A stretch of DNA of 64,000 bases, from the NCBI GenBank assembly GCA_021413975.1, contig JAIOPJ010000021.1, positions 1-64,000 on the forward strand, read 5' to 3'. Of the stretch, positions 25,033 to 61,390 are shown piece by piece. The DNA comes from Gemmatimonadota bacterium (GTDB taxonomy: Bacteria > Gemmatimonadota > Gemmatimonadetes > Gemmatimonadales > Gemmatimonadaceae). Numbering within the stretch: the stretch's first letter is position 1; the number at the start of each line of letters is the position of its first letter. The notes under the pieces are model-generated. The model saw nothing but the letters and a program-made list of their open reading frames with translations, did no database searches and had not been told where the DNA came from. The position numbers and the translations under genes are program-made.

Positions 25033-25587
25033 GTGTCAATCAAGAACGACCGCTGGATCACCGAGATGGCCACCAAGCACGGCATGATCGAGCCGTTCGA
25101 ATCGTCGCAGCAGCGGGAGGGGGTCGTTTCGTACGGCGTCTCCGCTTACGGCTACGACATGCGGGTGGCGCCGGAGTACAAGATCTTCACGAATGTGCTG
25201 TCGTCGATCGTGGATCCCAAGCACTTCGATCCGAAGTCGTTCGTGGAGTTCGAGGGGCCGGTGTGCATCGTGCCGCCGAACTCGTTCGCGCTTGCCAGGT
25301 CGATCGAGTACTTCCGGATCCCGCGGAATGTCATGACGATCACCGTGGGCAAGTCGACGTATGCGCGGTGCGGGATCATCACGAACGTGACGCCGTTCGA
25401 GCCGGAGTGGGAAGGGTTCGTGACGTTGGAGATCTCGAATACCACTCCTCTGCCGGCGAAGATCTATTCGAATGAAGGGATCGCGCAGGTGTTGTTCTTT
25501 GAAGGGGATGAGGGGCCGCTCGTGAGCTATAAGGACAAGAAGGGGAAGTATCAGGGGCAGGTCGGGGTAACGTTGCCGCGGATCTGA
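25033..25587 (+). CDS. dcd: dCTP deaminase
   Basis: Converts dCTP to dUTP for thymidylate synthesis. The 184-residue protein starts at GTG 25033 (VSIKNDRWI). It shows the family core with [10 protein letters not shown] and the catalytic-glutamate segment [13 protein letters not shown], followed by [14 protein letters not shown]. The size is that of standard bacterial Dcd. Whether it also hydrolyses dUTP cannot be decided by eye. It is divergent from the nuo operon and marks the last core gene before the accessory island. Confidence 0.94.
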
Positions 25588-26095
25588 AAGCCCGATTCAG
25601 AGGCACGAGCGCGACCGCGCCGCAGCCGGCGCAGCTTGTAGAGCGCGATTCGCATGAGAGGGCCTATTCGACGTCCCCATTCTCAGGGCTCCGCCTACTC
25701 AGAGGAGTGCAAACCCTCAGCCCTCCAGCGTCTCCTCCCCCGTCGGGGCCGCCGCACGGAGCAAAGTGCGACGCGCAGCCGCACTCGCGACGCGAATAGC
25801 GGGTGCTCCGTCGTCTCCACGTGCTGGTGCCATCCGGAAGCCGCGTGCCGCTGGGCGACGTTCCTCGCTCGCCAGATCGCCGTGCACTGATTCGAAAGCA
25901 CTAGCTCGGCGGCTCGTCCCACCAGCCCGCGATCGAGCTGGGCCCAGGCTCGTCCCGCTACTTCGCAGCGGGTTGCGCGTTCCTGGTCCGCGAGCACTAT
26001 TTGCGTATCAACCCTTGTCCGCTGAGCAGTTAGGCATCATCCGCAGGCCCGAAGATCGGGCTCGACGCGGTTGAAACCGATTTCAGGGAGCGCAA
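25588..26095. other. Gene-poor left edge of accessory island
   Basis: About 500 bases with no gene I can support. Short open frames exist on both strands but lack ribosome binding sites and recognisable sequence. There is an 8-bp inverted repeat (ACGGAGCA near 25754 and TGCTCCGT near 25803) with smaller internal repeats, so the region may form secondary structure. It separates dcd from genes with lower GC content and probably contains the left junction of the island. Confidence 0.5.
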
Positions 26096-26554
26096 GTGCC
26101 AATCTTGTATTATTGGAAGCGCGAGCAGTTCACTTCCGACAATGCGGAGCCGCCAAGGGATGCTGACCTCGTGCTCTCGCAGGATTCGGCGAGACTGGTG
26201 CACGCCGATGGCCAGCGCATGTGGATAGTGAGTTGCGACTTCAATGGCAAGTACGTGCTTGTCGCGCAGCTGACGATCGATCGTTCAGAGGAACGTGGGA
26301 ATCCTCTAGGGCGGTACACTGTTATTCCGAGAGCGGGTTCGACGCGCAGATATCGACTCGTGAATCCGACCCCTGATGTGGAATCGGTGATTCGGCAACT
26401 AAGCTTCCAGCCGACCGCAAAGACCCTTGGTCATGTATTTGAAGGCGAGGCTGCTGTGCGCGAGCTGAATCGCGCGGACGATCAACTACTGGATGCCTTC
26501 GCGAATGGACTGAAGCCGGCAACGTCGTCGCTTCCGTGGCGACTGGACCGCTAG
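26096..26554 (+). CDS. Hypothetical protein, 152 residues
   Basis: I do not recognise this family. The gene starts with GTG preceded by GGGAG at six bases, a good ribosome binding site, which supports it being real. The protein is soluble and of mixed composition. The N-terminal half (a Trp/Ile/Val-rich strand pattern around MWIVSCDF and KYVLVAQLTI) could be a small beta-barrel; similarity to PUA/EVE-type folds is only an impression. It is followed on the same strand by the DUF6615-like gene after 166 bases. Third codon positions are less GC-rich than in flanking core genes, suggesting transfer. Confidence 0.6.
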   Translation: MPILYYWKREQFTSDNAEPPRDADLVLSQDSARLVHADGQRMWIVSCDFNGKYVLVAQLTIDRSEERGNPLGRYTVIPRAGSTRRYRLVNPTPDVESVIRQLSFQPTAKTLGHVFEGEAAVRELNRADDQLLDAFANGLKPATSSLPWRLDR

Positions 26555-26720
26555 TGCTGCATCGGAGCCGCCTCCGCCCATCGTCGGATGTTGATCGATG
26601 GCGGTGAGTAGTGGCGCCATGGCCACCGAACTCGCAGCACCGCAAGACTACTAGACAGACGTGCGCCCTCATGCCAGGCGAACGGGCACCGCGCAACCCG
26701 ACACTTGACATCCTGACTTA

Positions 26721-27557
26721 ATGCTCGCGATTCCGTCCGGCCAACTGAGCCTCTGCGATGCTCTAAAGCAGCTCGAGTCACACACGTGGCTCGAGCTTGA
26801 GGCCGGAGTGGCGGTGAAGCAGAGACTCGATGAAGAATCGGTTACCGCCTACCACCTCATGCGGTTAGCTCGGGCTGTGTCACAGATTGTGATTGAGAAG
26901 CACAGCCGGCCTCGCGAATCTCGGACGGGTGCCGACTGGGAATGGTGGATCGGACGCCCTGGCGCTTTCTTGGGTTTCCGCGTGCAGGCGAAGATCGTGA
27001 ACGCCGAGAGCGTCGCCTATGCCTCGCTCTACTCCTCGGCAGCGAACCCCACGAAGCAGGTAGACAAGCTTATCAACGCGGCCGAGCACGCGGGACGGAA
27101 TACATACCCTACCTATGCGTTCTACAACTACTGGCTGCCCTACGCTGGCACTCCGACGGACTGGCCTTGCCCGAGAGTGGGAACCGAGCCTCGTAGCATC
27201 GGCTGGACAATCGCGAGTGCGTACGACATTGCCGATCATCTACGTTCTTGGAGACCCTCTCGTAAGGCACGAGATCTCAGCAATCTGATGTATCCAGTGT
27301 CGTGCATGTTCTGCTGCGGATGCTCAGCGGCGGCAAAGACGAGGGAGGCATCGCTCGCGGAGCGCCTCGGCGCCTGGCTGTCATCGCGTTGGGCGGAGCA
27401 TGCACCACGTGTAGTAGAGAGTGCTCCGCCGTACGTCCAGAGACTCTACCGTCTTGCCGCCGCCCGCGCTGACGCGCGATCGAGGTTTCACCCACTGTCT
27501 GAGCGCGACAATGGCATTCCTGACGGGCTCTCTCGCGTTGTGCTCATCGCAGGGTGA
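26721..27557 (+). CDS. DUF6615-like protein, possible nuclease
   Basis: Resembles DUF6615 proteins, which are uncharacterised. The 278-residue protein carries TGADWEWW (about residues 72-79) followed, 14 residues later, by FRVQAKIV. An acidic residue followed by a Q-x-K motif on a strand is reminiscent of PD-(D/E)xK nuclease cores, so a DNA-cleaving role is possible but unproven. A cluster of cysteines (MFCCGCS, about 194-200) lies in the C-terminal half. The gene has lower GC than the core genome and lies in the island next to other accessory genes. It converges with the NUDIX fusion gene. Confidence 0.6.
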   Translation: MLAIPSGQLSLCDALKQLESHTWLELEAGVAVKQRLDEESVTAYHLMRLARAVSQIVIEKHSRPRESRTGADWEWWIGRPGAFLGFRVQAKIVNAESVAYASLYSSAANPTKQVDKLINAAEHAGRNTYPTYAFYNYWLPYAGTPTDWPCPRVGTEPRSIGWTIASAYDIADHLRSWRPSRKARDLSNLMYPVSCMFCCGCSAAAKTREASLAERLGAWLSSRWAEHAPRVVESAPPYVQRLYRLAAARADARSRFHPLSERDNGIPDGLSRVVLIAG

Positions 27558-27629
27558 GTCCCCGACAGCGCGCCGAGGACCCGGCATCGAAGTCAGCAAG
27601 GACACTACGGGATGTTGAGGTTTCTAGCC

Positions 27630-29399
27630 TCACGGATGGGGCACTTTCGACGGCGCGACCGCAGCCGAAGAATCCTTGGGTGCACTGAGGAGAGCCTGCT
27701 TCATCGCGTCTGGCAAGGAGCTCCATAGAGCGAACAAGGCAGCCAGTATGAACGCGCCTACACCGATGACCCATTGCCACCGACGCGGGAGCGTCGCCAG
27801 AGGTTTCATATAGAAGCCCTCAAGTGTCTCAGAAGCTACAACACTGTCTGGGCGCGGCGCGGATGCAATATCCCCGTGCGGTGGGCGGCTCGCCGCAACT
27901 CCAGCTAGCGGATTGACTCGCGGAGGATGAATCTCGAAGCTCCTCGCAGCGGCCAGAACCTTCTCACAATCAGATTCGTACACGGCAAACTCTCGAAGTC
28001 GGTGCGTTTGCTCAGGAGCCGCAAATGCGAGATACCGTTCGAGCGCGCAGAGTGAACTGAGTGCCTCACTCAGAGCCCACACCGGCCGTTTGTTCGAAGA
28101 CACCGGATCACGCCATAGACCAGTCGCGGTCTCCTGTTGTTCGAGCAACCAACTGGAAAGTGCGCTTATCGTGCTCACATGCACATCGCGAGGCATCGCA
28201 ATGAGCGCCCTGAGCACAAGTGGAGGCACGAAATGTTTGAACTCCATTCGTGCACCGCCGGATGACGGCGAAAGCGAGTCGGTTTCCGACAAGAGAACCG
28301 TGCCAGAATTGGCAACAAAGCCGGAGAGGAATGCTGCGACCGGATTGTTGTCCGTGGCACTCATGTTGTGTCCGCAGGCCACAAGACAACTGACGGCACG
28401 CGAGGTGTGAGCGTACGTGACGGAGTCCACCGTGTTCGTGTGTTGCAGGTAGGGACCCCAAAGCCCTGCCTTGGATCTCGCGGCGAATAGTGCCTGCACG
28501 GAGCTTTCCGGAACCTGACTCCGATCCACGGCAAGAATTGCTTCGAGCGCCAAGCAGGTTGGGAGAACCCTAGGGGCAAGCGACTCGCTATTCATTCCCC
28601 ATCCCCCTGTCTCGTGCCTGTTCTCTAGCAACCAATGGACCCCCCACTCGCAGGCCAGCTGCGCTTCCGAGCTCCCAATTTGAGAAAGCGCCAGCATCAC
28701 GTAGGCCGTACTTTCCGTCACTGAAGGCGACCCGATCGCTGCCATCCCCTTCATCCCCCACCCCCCATCCTTGTTTCTCTTCGCCAGAAGGGTCCTGGCG
28801 GCAGCTTGAACTTCGACACCGTCGAGAGCAGCACCTGCGAGTAGCGCTGACCGCACCCCGAGTGCCGTCCCGATGATCCCGACTCTGCGGTTTCCGAGCA
28901 GATGATCCCAGCCGTGCTCTGCGTCCACCTGGACCTGAGCGTTCAGAATGCCCGTGCGTGCGCGGTCCCGCGCGGTCGCGCAGGAGGCGATACAATCGAA
29001 GAGGCGCTCTGAATGAACGAGATGACTCGCTCGTTTGACGGCTTGCATTACGTTGGGGGCTAGTGACTCCGCGATCTCTTGTAGAGCCGCACAGGGTGTC
29101 AAGCCATGCTTCGCCTCTTCCGCAGCGGAAAGCACGCATGTGTACACCGCCATGAGGATCGCCTCGTCCGCCAGCAGGCAAACGAATCGCAGTTTCGTTG
29201 CAGCGATTCCAGTTTCCTCGTGCAGCTCTCTGGATGCGCACGCGACTGAGCTTTCTCTTCCTCGCATGCGGCCTCCTGGCAGAGCCCGCGCTCTGGGGTA
29301 CAAGCCATGGGAAGGCCGACGCAACAGAAGCACACTGTCAATCGACTGGCCGAAGACAACCACTCCGGTCGTAATAAGTCTCGAATCCGAATCAGTCAT
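27630..29399 (-). CDS. NUDIX hydrolase/cyclase-like toroid fusion with C-terminal membrane anchor
   Basis: Three-part protein of 589 residues. Residues about 8-140 are a NUDIX domain with a perfect 23-residue NUDIX box (G43 to I65, REL and EE present), predicted to hydrolyse a nucleoside-diphosphate-linked compound. Residues about 165-490 hold repeated helical segments with GGWG motifs (KDGGWGMKG, ETGGWGMNS, GLWGPY), like the alpha-toroid of prenyltransferase/squalene-cyclase proteins; a cyclase DxDD motif is not evident. A single hydrophobic helix lies near 543-562 with a short polar tail. The ATG overlaps the stop of the cupin-like gene (ATGA), so both are coupled. Function unknown. Confidence 0.8.
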   Translation of the reverse strand: MTDSDSRLITTGVVVFGQSIDSVLLLRRPSHGLYPRARALPGGRMRGRESSVACASRELHEETGIAATKLRFVCLLADEAILMAVYTCVLSAAEEAKHGLTPCAALQEIAESLAPNVMQAVKRASHLVHSERLFDCIASCATARDRARTGILNAQVQVDAEHGWDHLLGNRRVGIIGTALGVRSALLAGAALDGVEVQAAARTLLAKRNKDGGWGMKGMAAIGSPSVTESTAYVMLALSQIGSSEAQLACEWGVHWLLENRHETGGWGMNSESLAPRVLPTCLALEAILAVDRSQVPESSVQALFAARSKAGLWGPYLQHTNTVDSVTYAHTSRAVSCLVACGHNMSATDNNPVAAFLSGFVANSGTVLLSETDSLSPSSGGARMEFKHFVPPLVLRALIAMPRDVHVSTISALSSWLLEQQETATGLWRDPVSSNKRPVWALSEALSSLCALERYLAFAAPEQTHRLREFAVYESDCEKVLAAARSFEIHPPRVNPLAGVAASRPPHGDIASAPRPDSVVASETLEGFYMKPLATLPRRWQWVIGVGAFILAALFALWSSLPDAMKQALLSAPKDSSAAVAPSKVPHP

Positions 29400-30118
29400 G
29401 TGGCATTGTCGGTGCGCGCAATCAGCACTCGCTGTACGGCGAGCAGTTGACGGCGTAGCTCATCAGCACTGTACCGCGGACTCATGGTTGCCAGCGATCG
29501 GCGCTCGGACGCGTTGCGACAAACAACAGTGACATCCCTTTCATACGGGCCCTGCAGACAGAGGGTCACAGTGTCAGCACGTGGTGTTCGTTCCACTTGG
29601 TGTAAGTCGCGCGGATCAAGAGAATAGAGCGATCCTCTTGCAAGCGCCACGTCAAGTATGCGGCGCAGGCGCATGGTGAACTGCCTGACCGTGCGATACT
29701 GCGTCGGATGTACGGCTAGTTCTCGTGAGGAGTATTCTGCTCCAGCATCATCGCGCCCAAAGATACGAAAGCGGAGGGTGCCGTGGACAACACACGAATC
29801 AAGCGCCCACGCGTGATTGTGAATGTCCTCTGGGGCCGTCACGATGCGATTGGACTCCCAATGATGTAGCCGCAATCGATAGGCCGAACCTGGAGACTCC
29901 GCGAGTAGGAGCTTCTGAAACCCGTTGACGTGGAGATATGATTGCGCGGCAGCCGTCGCGAGCAACGATTCACTCGCAAGAAGATCGGTGAGCAAGCGCA
30001 CCAGCGCCGGTCGGCGCGCTAGCTTCCGAAGAAGCAACCACCGTTCGTCGGCTGCGACCGGGGCCCTCTGTTCCCATACGGCCAGAAGGCTGCCCACTTC
30101 GGCGAGAGTGAACGACAT
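29396..30118 (-). CDS. Cupin-like metal-binding protein
   Basis: A 240-residue soluble protein with a probable cupin/cysteine-dioxygenase-like barrel. The HNHAW motif (about residues 99-103) supplies two likely metal ligands, and LDPRDLHQV near 173 has the trailing histidine expected of such folds. An N-terminal helical region of about 70 residues precedes the barrel. ATG 30118 was chosen at MSFTLAEVG; the longer frame upstream runs into the IS remnant. Its TGA overlaps the ATG of the NUDIX fusion gene, forming a two-gene operon. The substrate is unknown. Confidence 0.68.
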   Translation of the reverse strand: MSFTLAEVGSLLAVWEQRAPVAADERWLLLRKLARRPALVRLLTDLLASESLLATAAAQSYLHVNGFQKLLLAESPGSAYRLRLHHWESNRIVTAPEDIHNHAWALDSCVVHGTLRFRIFGRDDAGAEYSSRELAVHPTQYRTVRQFTMRLRRILDVALARGSLYSLDPRDLHQVERTPRADTVTLCLQGPYERDVTVVCRNASERRSLATMSPRYSADELRRQLLAVQRVLIARTDNAT

Positions 30119-30161
30119 GCGGGAAAGCGGAAGGTTAGGTGCCGCTATTGGCTGGGGGAAT

Positions 30162-30389
30162 CTAGCAGCTGTCTCGTTGCGAGGGGGAGAACGACCGTTC
30201 TGTTCTCCAGAGGCGCATTCGCCTGAATGAACATCCCACTTGCGACGCGGCCAGCGGTAGGCCGATCTGGTGGGCGTGGAGCTCGAAGCGCTTCGCGAGC
30301 TCGGCCAGCGTGGCATCGACTTTCAGCGCGGCGAGCGCCACCTTAGCCTTGAAGGCGGGGGAGTGATTCCGACGGGGACGGCGGGGCAT
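30162..30389 (-). pseudogene. IS3-family transposase OrfA remnant
   Basis: The first 42 residues (RRNHSPAFKAKVALAALK and on to HAHQI) are the helix-turn-helix start of IS3-family OrfA. Then similarity stops abruptly and unrelated sequence follows. OrfB is absent. The fragment marks a decayed insertion at the upstream side of the cupin/NUDIX operon. Confidence 0.8.
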
Positions 30390-30475
30390 GAGGGCTCCAG
30401 GGAAGTGAGCGAAAGATCGCTCAGGGAGCCCGCCTGTCTACAGAGCGTGCTGTCCGAAGAACCGGGGCCACTTCT
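30260..30475 (-). mobile_element. Truncated IS3-family element (left end)
   Basis: Contains the OrfA start and, about 60-80 bases upstream of it, the sequence GTGGCCCCGGTTCTTCGG (minus strand, near 30454-30471), which looks like an IS3-group terminal repeat. The right end and most of the element are missing. No matching direct repeats were found around it. Confidence 0.6.
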
Positions 30476-30574
30476 CCGGGCCGCATCCGCGCGCCATGTC
30501 TCAGGTAGTGTGTGCATACCCACTACCTCTGCGAGACCCCCCCAGCGGACAGAGTTAGTTGAGCTTCGGATACG

Positions 30575-30611
30575 AGTACGGTAAGACGCACTCCGGATCA
30601 CTTACCGTACT
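30575..30611. terminator. Hairpin downstream of tandem paralogue A
   Basis: Perfect 11-bp inverted repeat AGTACGGTAAG / CTTACCGTACT with a 15-base loop, in the gap between paralogue A and the IS remnant. It could end the A transcript (minus strand), but no T-run follows, so it might instead be a protein-binding or repeat-derived structure. Confidence 0.4.
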
Positions 30612-30672
30612 GAATCGCCCCGGGAGTGCCGGACGCTCCATTCCCCGAGAGGTTGGGGCCTGGGGTCTGCGC

Positions 30673-31215
30673 CTACTCCGCCCCTCCATCCACTCCCCAC
30701 ACATCGACGCACCCCGACGCTTCACGGCGATGGAACTCGTCCGGATCGTGTTCCAGCAGGTCGGCGAGGTCGTGGTGGCCGAGCGCACGCAACGTCGAGA
30801 CTCGGATCTGGCGGTCGCGTGCATCCCACGCCGCGTTGAGCACCAGCCACTCCGCCGGAGCCTCGTCGATGTACCAGTCCTCGTCGTCACCGAGCCCATG
30901 GGCGCGCTTCACCTTGTCGATCTCGGCATACAGGCGGAGCATCTCCGCGTCGTGACTCGCGGCCTGACTCGTGAGGCACTGGAGCAGGATCTCGACGAAG
31001 TAGCAGATCGCATCGTCCGAGATGAGCCCCTCCGCCGCGAGCGTCCGTGCCGCCGCGATCCAGGGGCCCGGCTCTGGCGTCTCCTCCAGCTCCTCCAGGA
31101 TGCGACCCAGGATCCGCTGCGCTCGCTCCGCTTCCGGCTCGACCAAGAGCGAGCGAAGGCGTGCGAGCGGAGGACGCGCGTCGTCGGATGGCGTGGCGTC
31201 GGGGCGACGGAACAT
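30673..31215 (-). CDS. Hypothetical protein, tandem paralogue A
   Basis: A 180-residue acidic, mostly helical protein that I do not recognise. It is a clear paralogue of the next upstream gene. Both contain PPLARLR near the start, GPWIAAARTLAAEG in the middle, YFVEILL, LKRAHGL/VKRAHGL, and end with RVSTLRxLGH, ADLLEHDP and VWG. The ATG at 31215 aligns with the start of the paralogue and similarity extends a little upstream (DHLPPM against DHFPPM), so the duplication included the leader. The spacing of about 106 bases and equal orientation suggest a tandem duplication in the island. Confidence 0.7.
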   Translation of the reverse strand: MFRRPDATPSDDARPPLARLRSLLVEPEAERAQRILGRILEELEETPEPGPWIAAARTLAAEGLISDDAICYFVEILLQCLTSQAASHDAEMLRLYAEIDKVKRAHGLGDDEDWYIDEAPAEWLVLNAAWDARDRQIRVSTLRALGHHDLADLLEHDPDEFHRREASGCVDVWGVDGGAE

Positions 31216-31321
31216 TGGAGGAAGATGGTCGATTGGCCGTGGCACCGCCACGCGGGTGAGGAAGAACATGTCCAGCCGATCGATGAACGCTCGGTCATCC
31301 GGAGGCTGACCGCCGCGGGCT

Positions 31322-31861
31322 CTACTCCGTATCGTCGGCTCCCCACACGTCGAAGTGGCCCGAGGCTTCCCGACTCCGGAACTCGGCCGGATCGTGCTCG
31401 AGCAGGTCCGCGATGTCGCCGTGGCCGAGCGTGCGCAGCGTCGACACGCGGATCTCGCGATCGCGTTCGTTCCACGCGTCATTGAGCGAGGTCCACTCCG
31501 GCGGACCCTCGTTCACGTACCACTCCTCGTCGTCACGCAGTCCGTGTGCCCGCTTCAGCTGGTCCATCTCGTGCTCCAAGCGGAGCATCTCGCCATCGTG
31601 GGACGTTGACTGGAGGGTGATGCACTCGAGCAGGATCTCGACGAAGTAGTAGACCGCATCGGCAGAGATGACGCCCTCCGCGGCCAGCGTCCGCGCCGCC
31701 GCGATCCAGGGCCCGGGATCCCGCGTGTCGTCGAGCTCCCTCCGGATGCGCCCCATCATCCGCGCCGACCGCGCTCTCGCGGGCTCGAGGACGAACGTGC
31801 GAAGACGGGCGAGGGGCGGGCGGTTGTCGTCCGTCCTGGGGGCTGCGCGGCGGCGGCTCAT
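31322..31861 (-). CDS. Hypothetical protein, tandem paralogue B
   Basis: A 179-residue paralogue of the downstream gene, sharing the same conserved blocks over its whole length. It is rich in Arg, Glu and Asp and has no membrane segment or signal peptide. ATG 31861 was chosen to match the start in paralogue A; the open frame upstream is unconserved. No enzyme motif is visible. The alternating acidic and aromatic C-terminal part (DDEEWYVNEGPPEW) is the best-conserved section. Confidence 0.7.
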   Translation of the reverse strand: MSRRRAAPRTDDNRPPLARLRTFVLEPARARSARMMGRIRRELDDTRDPGPWIAAARTLAAEGVISADAVYYFVEILLECITLQSTSHDGEMLRLEHEMDQLKRAHGLRDDEEWYVNEGPPEWTSLNDAWNERDREIRVSTLRTLGHGDIADLLEHDPAEFRSREASGHFDVWGADDTE

Positions 31862-32018
31862 CGGCGGAAAATGGTCGACGGATCGTCGCGCGGCTACTCG
31901 ACCCCCGTCCCGCTGCCCTCGTGCCGCCGGATGGGACGATCCGCCCATTCACGCGTCCCACGCCCTTCACTTGCGGGCACGAACTTTCCGCACTGCCTGC
32001 ACAAGCAGCGCGCGGGCG

Positions 32019-60922: not shown

Positions 60923-61390
60923 TCAGTCCGCGACGAGCCCGCTGATCCCCGGCCACCCTGCCGGATTGTACCGCGCGATCGTCCGCAGGTAGTGCACCCC
61001 ATCCTTGCCGAACTGCTCGCGCACCAGCGCCGCCGCGCGCGCGACCGGTTCCGCCGCCGCGTAGGGCGGCTCGAGCGTCTCGTCGATCACCGCCCCCGCG
61101 GCCTTCACCCCGGCCGCCTGCAGGAACGCGGTCTGGATCGCCGGTTCGATGTCCACGTAGAGCGCCTGCAGCAGGTCGATCTCGTCCTCGGCGGTCTGCG
61201 CATTCATGCGCACGACCTCCTGCGCGAGCTTCGCGGCCGGCCAGGTCACGAGCGTGACTGGGCGGAATCCGCCGCGCTTGGCCATCCGCTGGATGTAGAG
61301 CGCCTTCACGTCCTTGCGCTCCGAGATCAGGCGGGTGAGCAACGCGATGCGCCGGGGCGCCGGGAGCTCGCGGTAGATGGAGCCGCTCAC
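60923..61390 (-). CDS. Hypothetical protein coupled to sdhB
   Basis: A 155-residue soluble, helical protein that I do not recognise. The GTG start at 61390 overlaps the sdhB stop (GTGA), so it is translationally coupled to succinate dehydrogenase. It has no cysteines or membrane segments, so it is not an anchor subunit; a chaperone or assembly role is possible but only a guess. The C-terminus [11 protein letters not shown] may be conserved. It ends 23 bases before the nucleotidyltransferase gene. Confidence 0.7.

What the first reader, a model, noticed from the sequence alone, without database searches (positions are those of the whole stretch)
27630..30118. Two-gene system: cupin-like protein coupled to a NUDIX/cyclase-toroid/membrane-anchor fusion
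The NUDIX fusion joins a canonical NUDIX box, a squalene-cyclase-like helical toroid with GGWG repeats and a C-terminal membrane helix in one 589-residue protein. That architecture is not one I know. Its start overlaps the stop of a cupin-like gene by an ATGA junction. The pair lies in an island next to a possible nuclease and an IS remnant, so it could be a metabolite-processing or defence/signalling system.
Basis: partly seen in the sequence, partly recalled or inferred. Interest (0 to 1): 0.82.

Follow-up and report, generated by a model that had tools for sequence, protein, structure and literature searches.

The report
Cupin, NUDIX and membrane-toroid gene module
Two overlapping, horizontally acquired bacterial genes carry three activities (a metal-binding cupin, a NUDIX phosphohydrolase and a membrane-anchored squalene-cyclase-like ring) that lie side by side as separate genes in many actinobacteria, which points to an undescribed conserved system for processing some phosphorylated small molecule, possibly in cell defence.

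Summary
A 240-aa cupin (29396-30118, -) overlaps by ATGA a 589-aa fusion (27630-29399, -) of a canonical NUDIX domain, a squalene-cyclase-like alpha/alpha toroid and one C-terminal membrane helix. The pair is foreign: GC3 is about 0.61 against 0.94 for nuoD, it is absent from every other genome sampled in the phylum, and it lies beyond a gene-order breakpoint. The decisive new evidence comes from homologues. A cupin profile finds a family that Pfam, NCBIfam and PADLOC do not recognise. In actinobacteria it sits next to a toroid-plus-membrane gene and/or a stand-alone NUDIX gene (each within 1.5 kb in 26 of 40 loci; neither in 171 kb of control sequence). The fusion therefore joins partners that are neighbours elsewhere. 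Other loci join cupin, N-domain::toroid::TM and an IMPase; toroid, IMPase and viperin; or put a cupin between DpdE-like and DrmMI-like defence genes. The toroid lacks the cyclase DxDD motif but keeps an invariant Glu and His. Best reading: an undescribed, membrane-tethered module that processes a phosphorylated small molecule. Defence is plausible, not shown. Substrate and product are unknown.

The parts
29396..30118 (-). cupin gene, 240 aa; HxH (H100, H102) + H173, also H63, K69, H85 conserved
   Evidence: no Pfam/NCBIfam/PADLOC family
27630..29399 (-). NUDIX::toroid::TM fusion gene, 589 aa
29001..29399 (-). NUDIX domain, residues 1-133, canonical NUDIX box at 43-65
   Evidence: Pfam 1.6e-9; model pLDDT about 90 and VIA-align Z 16.6 to 3i9x, 16.3 to NrtR
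28020..28922 (-). alpha/alpha toroid, about residues 160-460; QW-like GGWG motifs; invariant E229, H389, W441
   Evidence: AF2 model of this part is low confidence
27714..27785 (-). C-terminal transmembrane helix, about residues 539-562
29396..29399 (-). ATGA stop/start overlap of the two genes
25588..30620 (.). foreign low-GC block (0.607 against 0.68-0.70 on either side) holding the pair, P0003 and DUF6615; starts at a gene-order breakpoint just after dcd
30258..30392 (-). IS3 OrfA-like remnant flanking the block
   Evidence: translation; family recognised by eye, not by a profile search

Best explanation
The pair is a horizontally acquired, fused version of a conserved accessory module made of a cupin, a membrane-anchored alpha/alpha toroid and a NUDIX hydrolase, which together process one phosphorylated small molecule at the cytoplasmic membrane. 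Shown: the three domains, their coupling here, and the recurrent neighbourhood of the same three families elsewhere. Inferred: the NUDIX domain hydrolyses a diphosphate bond of the substrate; the toroid holds the substrate or its organic part in a central pocket lined by invariant E229 and H389 and keeps the complex at the membrane through its TM helix; the cupin, with a three-His metal site like thiol dioxygenases, carries out a metal-dependent oxidation or rearrangement. In other versions an IMPase-type phosphatase, a P-loop kinase or a radical-SAM enzyme adds further steps, which suggests a nucleotide-like or other phosphorylated metabolite. The biological role (specialised metabolite, signal or anti-phage defence) is not settled.
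For: Domains. Translational overlap here; the L198 homologue also overlaps its cupin and toroid::TM genes by GTGA. Linkage: of 24 close cupin loci from one actinobacterial genus, 23 have the toroid gene and 21 the NUDIX gene adjacent. Across 40 loci, NUDIX lies within 1.5 kb in 26 and toroid in 26, with 0 and 0 in 171 kb of control sequence. Toroid homology between the split and fused forms: hhalign 98.2%, E 3.6e-14; P0001 to L198 30% over 306 aa, E 8e-27. Phosphate-handling partners: IMPase in L198 (2e-44) and in Thiodictyon, viperin in Thiodictyon, a P-loop kinase and rSAM beside cupins, tmk/pyrF beside Vibrio cupins. Invariant residues E229, H389 and the cupin His set.
Against: No substrate, product or activity is known. 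In the actinobacterial triads the NUDIX gene is on the opposite strand, so it is not in the same operon. The 24 close loci come from one genus and are not independent. The toroid model is low confidence. Many cupin relatives lack both partners and lie beside other genes (L199-L203, L205, L212, L213).
Confidence: 0.55

Rival explanations
1. Anti-phage or conflict system: the membrane-anchored NUDIX-toroid is an effector or sensor of a modified nucleotide, and the cupin makes, breaks or senses that nucleotide.
For: The homologous toroid in Thiodictyon is next to a viperin gene scoring well over the NCBIfam cut-off (288 bits against 180) and an IMPase on a plasmid stretch rich in transposases. 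A cyanobacterial cupin with a 2TM partner lies between a DpdE-like helicase (5e-207) and a DrmMI/type IIG methylase (3.5e-82). Distribution is patchy and composition foreign. Weak PADLOC PDC-S07 hit to the NUDIX part, 5e-5.
Against: One viperin case only: six other plasmid viperin loci that were opened have no annotated toroid neighbour. No viperin above cut-off in 395 genomes of the phylum. No PADLOC family for cupin or toroid. Vibrio and Pantoea cupins lie in clusters that look biosynthetic.
Confidence: 0.3
2. Terpenoid enzyme: a membrane-bound single-toroid cyclase acting on a prenyl diphosphate, with the NUDIX domain removing phosphate, by analogy with HAD-terpene-cyclase fusions that make drimenol.
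For: Toroid profile hits squalene-hopene cyclases and class II cyclases (1e-31 and weaker, including single-domain MstE). Bacterial phosphatase::cyclase fusions exist (PMC9128629). Solved relatives of the NUDIX domain include plant Nudix hydrolase 1 and geranyl-diphosphate phosphohydrolase, the latter weak at E 0.047.
Against: No DxDD or DxDTT in the aligned toroid core of any of 18 family members, although the middle Asp of DxDTT is essential in AsDMS. No prenyl-synthesis genes among the neighbours inspected here or in the homologous loci. Partner genes look more nucleotide- or phosphate-related.
Confidence: 0.15
3. Non-catalytic toroid: the ring is a protein-protein or lipid-binding scaffold that holds an ordinary house-cleaning NUDIX hydrolase at the membrane; the cupin is a neighbour with its own job.
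For: The toroid fold also serves as binding or thioester domains (weak TED_complement hits). NUDIX scores best against general MutT-like families. Some cupins have other partners.
Against: Strict conservation of E229, H389 and W441, and cupin linkage far above the control.
Confidence: 0.2

Closest known systems
Squalene-hopene cyclase C-terminal toroid (PF13243; 1gsz/2sqc/3sqc)
   Same: alpha/alpha toroid with QW-like repeats; profile E 1e-31; membrane association
   Different: single toroid of about 300 aa, no DxDD, anchored by a separate TM helix, fused to NUDIX
Bifunctional HAD-type drimenol synthases (AsDMS, PMC9128629)
   Same: phosphohydrolase domain fused N-terminally to a terpene-cyclase-like toroid
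   Different: HAD, not NUDIX; essential DxDTT absent here; no TM helix or cupin partner reported in the passages read
NUDIX hydrolases / NrtR-type NUDIX domains
   Same: complete NUDIX box and fold (Z 16.6 and 16.3)
   Different: fused to toroid and TM; substrate unknown
Cysteine/thiol dioxygenase cupins (phrog_4786; mercaptosuccinate dioxygenase 8vni, weak)
   Same: HxH...H three-His metal motif
   Different: no Pfam match; extra conserved H63, K69, H85; different N-terminal part; linked to NUDIX and toroid
Prokaryotic viperin loci
   Same: one homologous toroid gene (Thiodictyon) is next to IMPase and viperin
   Different: the window genome has no viperin above cut-off; the other viperin loci opened have no annotated toroid

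Membership tests
NUDIX hydrolase superfamily | NUDIX box GX5EX7REUXEEXGU | tested here: met
   residues 43-65; Pfam 1.6e-9
NUDIX hydrolase superfamily | NUDIX fold | tested here: met
   model pLDDT about 90; Z 16.6, rmsd 2.1 over 130 residues to 3i9x
NUDIX hydrolase superfamily | metal-dependent pyrophosphohydrolase activity | not testable with these tools
   needs purified protein
Class II terpene/squalene cyclases | alpha/alpha toroid sequence homology | tested here: met
Class II terpene/squalene cyclases | toroid fold by structure prediction | tested here: inconclusive
   helical but pLDDT 30-66; fold search filled by NUDIX hits
Class II terpene/squalene cyclases | DxDD/DxDTT protonation motif | tested here: not met
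   absent in the window protein and in the aligned toroid core of all 18 family members
Bifunctional HAD drimenol synthase | N-terminal HAD phosphatase domain | tested here: not met
   the N-terminal domain is NUDIX
Cupin / thiol dioxygenase | HxH + distal H metal triad | tested here: met
   H100, H102, H173
Cupin / thiol dioxygenase | match to a curated cupin or CDO profile | tested here: not met
   no Pfam cupin, no NCBIfam; only phrog_4786 at 1.3e-3
Cupin / thiol dioxygenase | beta-barrel fold | tested here: inconclusive
   single-sequence model pLDDT 35
Viperin antiviral system | viperin gene in the locus or genome | tested here: not met
   no match above the NF038283 cut-off in G000 or 394 further genomes of the phylum
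PADLOC PDC-S07 candidate defence | profile match | tested here: inconclusive
   5.2e-5 over the NUDIX part only; the profile may be a generic NUDIX
Known anti-phage systems | recognised defence gene beside the pair | tested here: not met
   fusion, cupin, P0003 and DUF6615 scanned against PADLOC: no system; the rest of the window was not scanned

The most novel reading that the evidence does not exclude
A previously undescribed, widespread immune or signalling system in which a cupin, a NUDIX hydrolase and a membrane-anchored squalene-cyclase-like toroid make, sense or destroy a modified nucleotide, with viperin as an occasional partner; the toroid fold would then be a new kind of nucleotide-handling membrane enzyme or effector.
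Probability: 0.2. Interest if true: 0.9.

Novelty: new variant of a known kind. Interest (0 to 1): 0.62.

Why it matters
The window fusion works as a Rosetta stone: it shows that three gene families that sit beside each other in many actinobacteria, one of them a cupin family absent from Pfam, NCBIfam and PADLOC, belong together. That turns a set of unannotated genes into one testable system and gives a squalene-cyclase-like toroid a context unlike terpene synthesis. The occasional viperin and DpdE/DrmMI neighbours make a defence test worth doing.

Tried and rejected
(1) Degenerate NUDIX at the N-terminus of the L198 and Thiodictyon toroid proteins: looked plausible by eye but not supported (hhalign probability 0.4%, E 0.17; no significant HMM hit). 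(2) The radical SAM genes beside the cupins of L162-L164 first looked viperin-like, but L164's is a SPASM-type enzyme closer to ScmF and mycofactocin maturases, so they are not counted as viperin. (3) General viperin-toroid association: six other plasmid viperin loci have no annotated toroid neighbour. (4) One-sequence searches of genome contigs and viral contigs returned almost only unrelated NUDIX proteins, and P0005 found no relative in viral contigs. (5) Toroid search of 274 genomes in the class of G446 and of 192 in the class of G448 found nothing; the second used a poorly built alignment (A1). (6) Structure of the cupin: useless model, pLDDT 35. (7) Fold searches listed only NUDIX-type matches; the absence of toroid matches is not evidence. 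(8) Literature searches found no description of the combination; only the open PMC library was searched. (9) The stretch between 25.6 and 60.9 kb is not one inserted island: it also holds genes such as a 2-oxoacid:ferredoxin oxidoreductase (named by eye) that match near dcd in some relatives, so only 25.6-30.6 kb is called foreign.

Full report
WHAT IS THERE. The two ORFs are as described. The fusion protein (27630-29399, minus strand, 589 aa) has a NUDIX domain (Pfam 1.6e-9, residues 9-74) with an intact NUDIX box, a toroid matching SQHop_cyclase_C above its cut-off (1.9e-7), and a C-terminal hydrophobic helix. AlphaFold2 with a mostly NUDIX alignment models the NUDIX part at pLDDT about 90 and the TM helix at 95, but the toroid only at 30-66. 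Structural comparison puts the NUDIX part at Z 16.6, rmsd 2.1 over 130 residues, to 3i9x, tied with NrtR. The cupin (29396-30118) has no Pfam family, but its HxH...H motif (H100, H102, H173) is kept in distant homologues. The two genes overlap by ATGA.

FOREIGN ORIGIN. Third-position GC is 0.625 (fusion) and 0.602 (cupin), and 0.63 and 0.68 in P0003 and DUF6615, against 0.94 in nuoD and 0.86 in dcd. The block 25588-30620 has GC 0.607 against 0.68-0.70 around it. dcd is present in 16 of 17 genomes of the genus searched, including this one, and DNA identity stops at 25571-25598, around the end of dcd, in all 15 relatives compared. In one closed relative the dcd end joins directly to sequence matching window 60925. 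The fusion was not found in 98 relatives; the cupin was not found in 393 further genomes of the class by single sequence, nor in 120 others of the phylum with the better profile.

THE MODULE ELSEWHERE. A profile of the cupin plus two plasmid homologues (Pantoea, Vibrio) was searched in 216 actinobacterial genomes and found 7 with a match. Reading the surrounding DNA showed, in L158, a toroid-plus-membrane-segment gene overlapping the cupin gene, and a NUDIX gene 8 bp beyond the cupin on the other strand; L159 and L160 have the same trio. Of the 24 close loci, 23 have the toroid gene and 21 the NUDIX gene beside it. Over 40 loci, NUDIX lies within 1.5 kb in 26 and toroid in 26, while 171 kb of the same contigs more than 3 kb away hold none of either by the same profiles. 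The 24 close loci are related, so they do not count as 24 independent cases. Independent support comes from the fusion in the window, from the radical-SAM/cupin/NUDIX loci L162-L164 (in L164 the NUDIX is 2.2 kb away) and from L204 (cupin followed by NUDIX).

BRIDGING FORMS. L198 has a cupin, then a 619-aa protein with an unidentified N-terminal domain, a toroid (30% identical to the window protein over 306 aa, E 8e-27) and two C-terminal membrane helices, then an IMPase. The Thiodictyon plasmid pTs485 has the same N-domain::toroid::2TM protein, interrupted by an IS630 element, followed by an IMPase and a viperin-family gene (288 bits, cut-off 180). The N-terminal domains of these two could not be shown to be NUDIX. 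A cyanobacterial cupin (L212) with a two-TM neighbour lies between a DpdE-like helicase and a DrmMI/type IIG methylase. Cupins of L200 and L202 also sit beside a membrane protein, with transposases close by. Vibrio and Pantoea cupins sit in clusters with nucleotide-type kinases, pyrF or transporters that look biosynthetic.

HOW IT MAY WORK. Shown by sequence: intact NUDIX box; conserved cupin His set; toroid with invariant E229, H389, W164, W314, W429 and W441 across the split and fused families, whose homology is supported by profile comparison (98.2%, E 3.6e-14); no DxDD or DxDTT in the aligned toroid core of any of 18 members (three members have a DxDD-like string only outside it). In the best register the helix bearing E229 aligns with squalene-hopene cyclase residue 447 onwards, but repeats make the register uncertain. 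Inferred: NUDIX cleaves a diphosphate, the toroid holds the substrate at the membrane, and the cupin carries out a metal-dependent step. The repeated presence of kinases, phosphatases and radical-SAM enzymes points to a phosphorylated, perhaps nucleotide-like, substrate. Whether this serves specialised metabolism, signalling or defence is open; I put defence at 0.3.

COMPARISON WITH THE KNOWN. Architecturally the nearest known enzymes are the bacterial HAD::toroid drimenol synthases (PMC9128629), but these need the DxDTT motif that is absent here and have a different phosphatase domain. The toroid is related to squalene-hopene cyclase but fails its motif test. No paper in the searched library describes the combination. 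That library holds only open PMC papers, so the module may be described elsewhere.

LIMITS. The toroid and cupin folds are not confirmed by structure. Control regions for the linkage test are on the same contigs and amount to 171 kb. PADLOC was run on four window proteins only.

Noticed in passing
26721-27557 (+) and 26096-26554 (+): DUF6615 protein (Pfam 1.3e-15) and a small orphan protein in the same low-GC3 foreign block, convergent with the cupin/fusion pair; no function found.
   Followed up: partly
30258-30392 (-): IS3 OrfA-like N-terminal remnant (MPRRPRRNHSPAFKAKVALAALKVDATLAELAKRFELHAHQIGLP) at the edge of the foreign block.
   Followed up: partly
30555-31948 (-): What look like three tandem related genes ending in a repeated motif (LADLLEHDPDEFHRREASG..DVWG); the two complete ORFs have no Pfam family.
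   Followed up: no
25585-25598 and 60925: A gene-order breakpoint directly after dcd in all nine relatives whose flanks were fetched; in one closed genome it joins window position 60925.
   Followed up: partly
L083 7725-12341: Thiodictyon plasmid: the toroid gene is interrupted by IS630 and followed by IMPase and viperin genes, a possible inactivated viperin-linked locus.
   Followed up: partly
L212 4619-13285: DpdE-like helicase, 2TM protein, cupin and DrmMI/type IIG methylase in one cyanobacterial run: a possible undescribed variant of a DNA-modification defence locus.
   Followed up: partly
L200 5817-6872 and L202 8113-9210: A cupin paired with a two-TM protein of no Pfam or PADLOC family, near transposases, in two actinobacterial genomes.
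   Followed up: no
L162-L164: Locus with a radical-SAM enzyme (SPASM-type in L164), cupin and NUDIX, with a P-loop kinase in L163 and L164; looks like a separate small biosynthetic system.
   Followed up: partly
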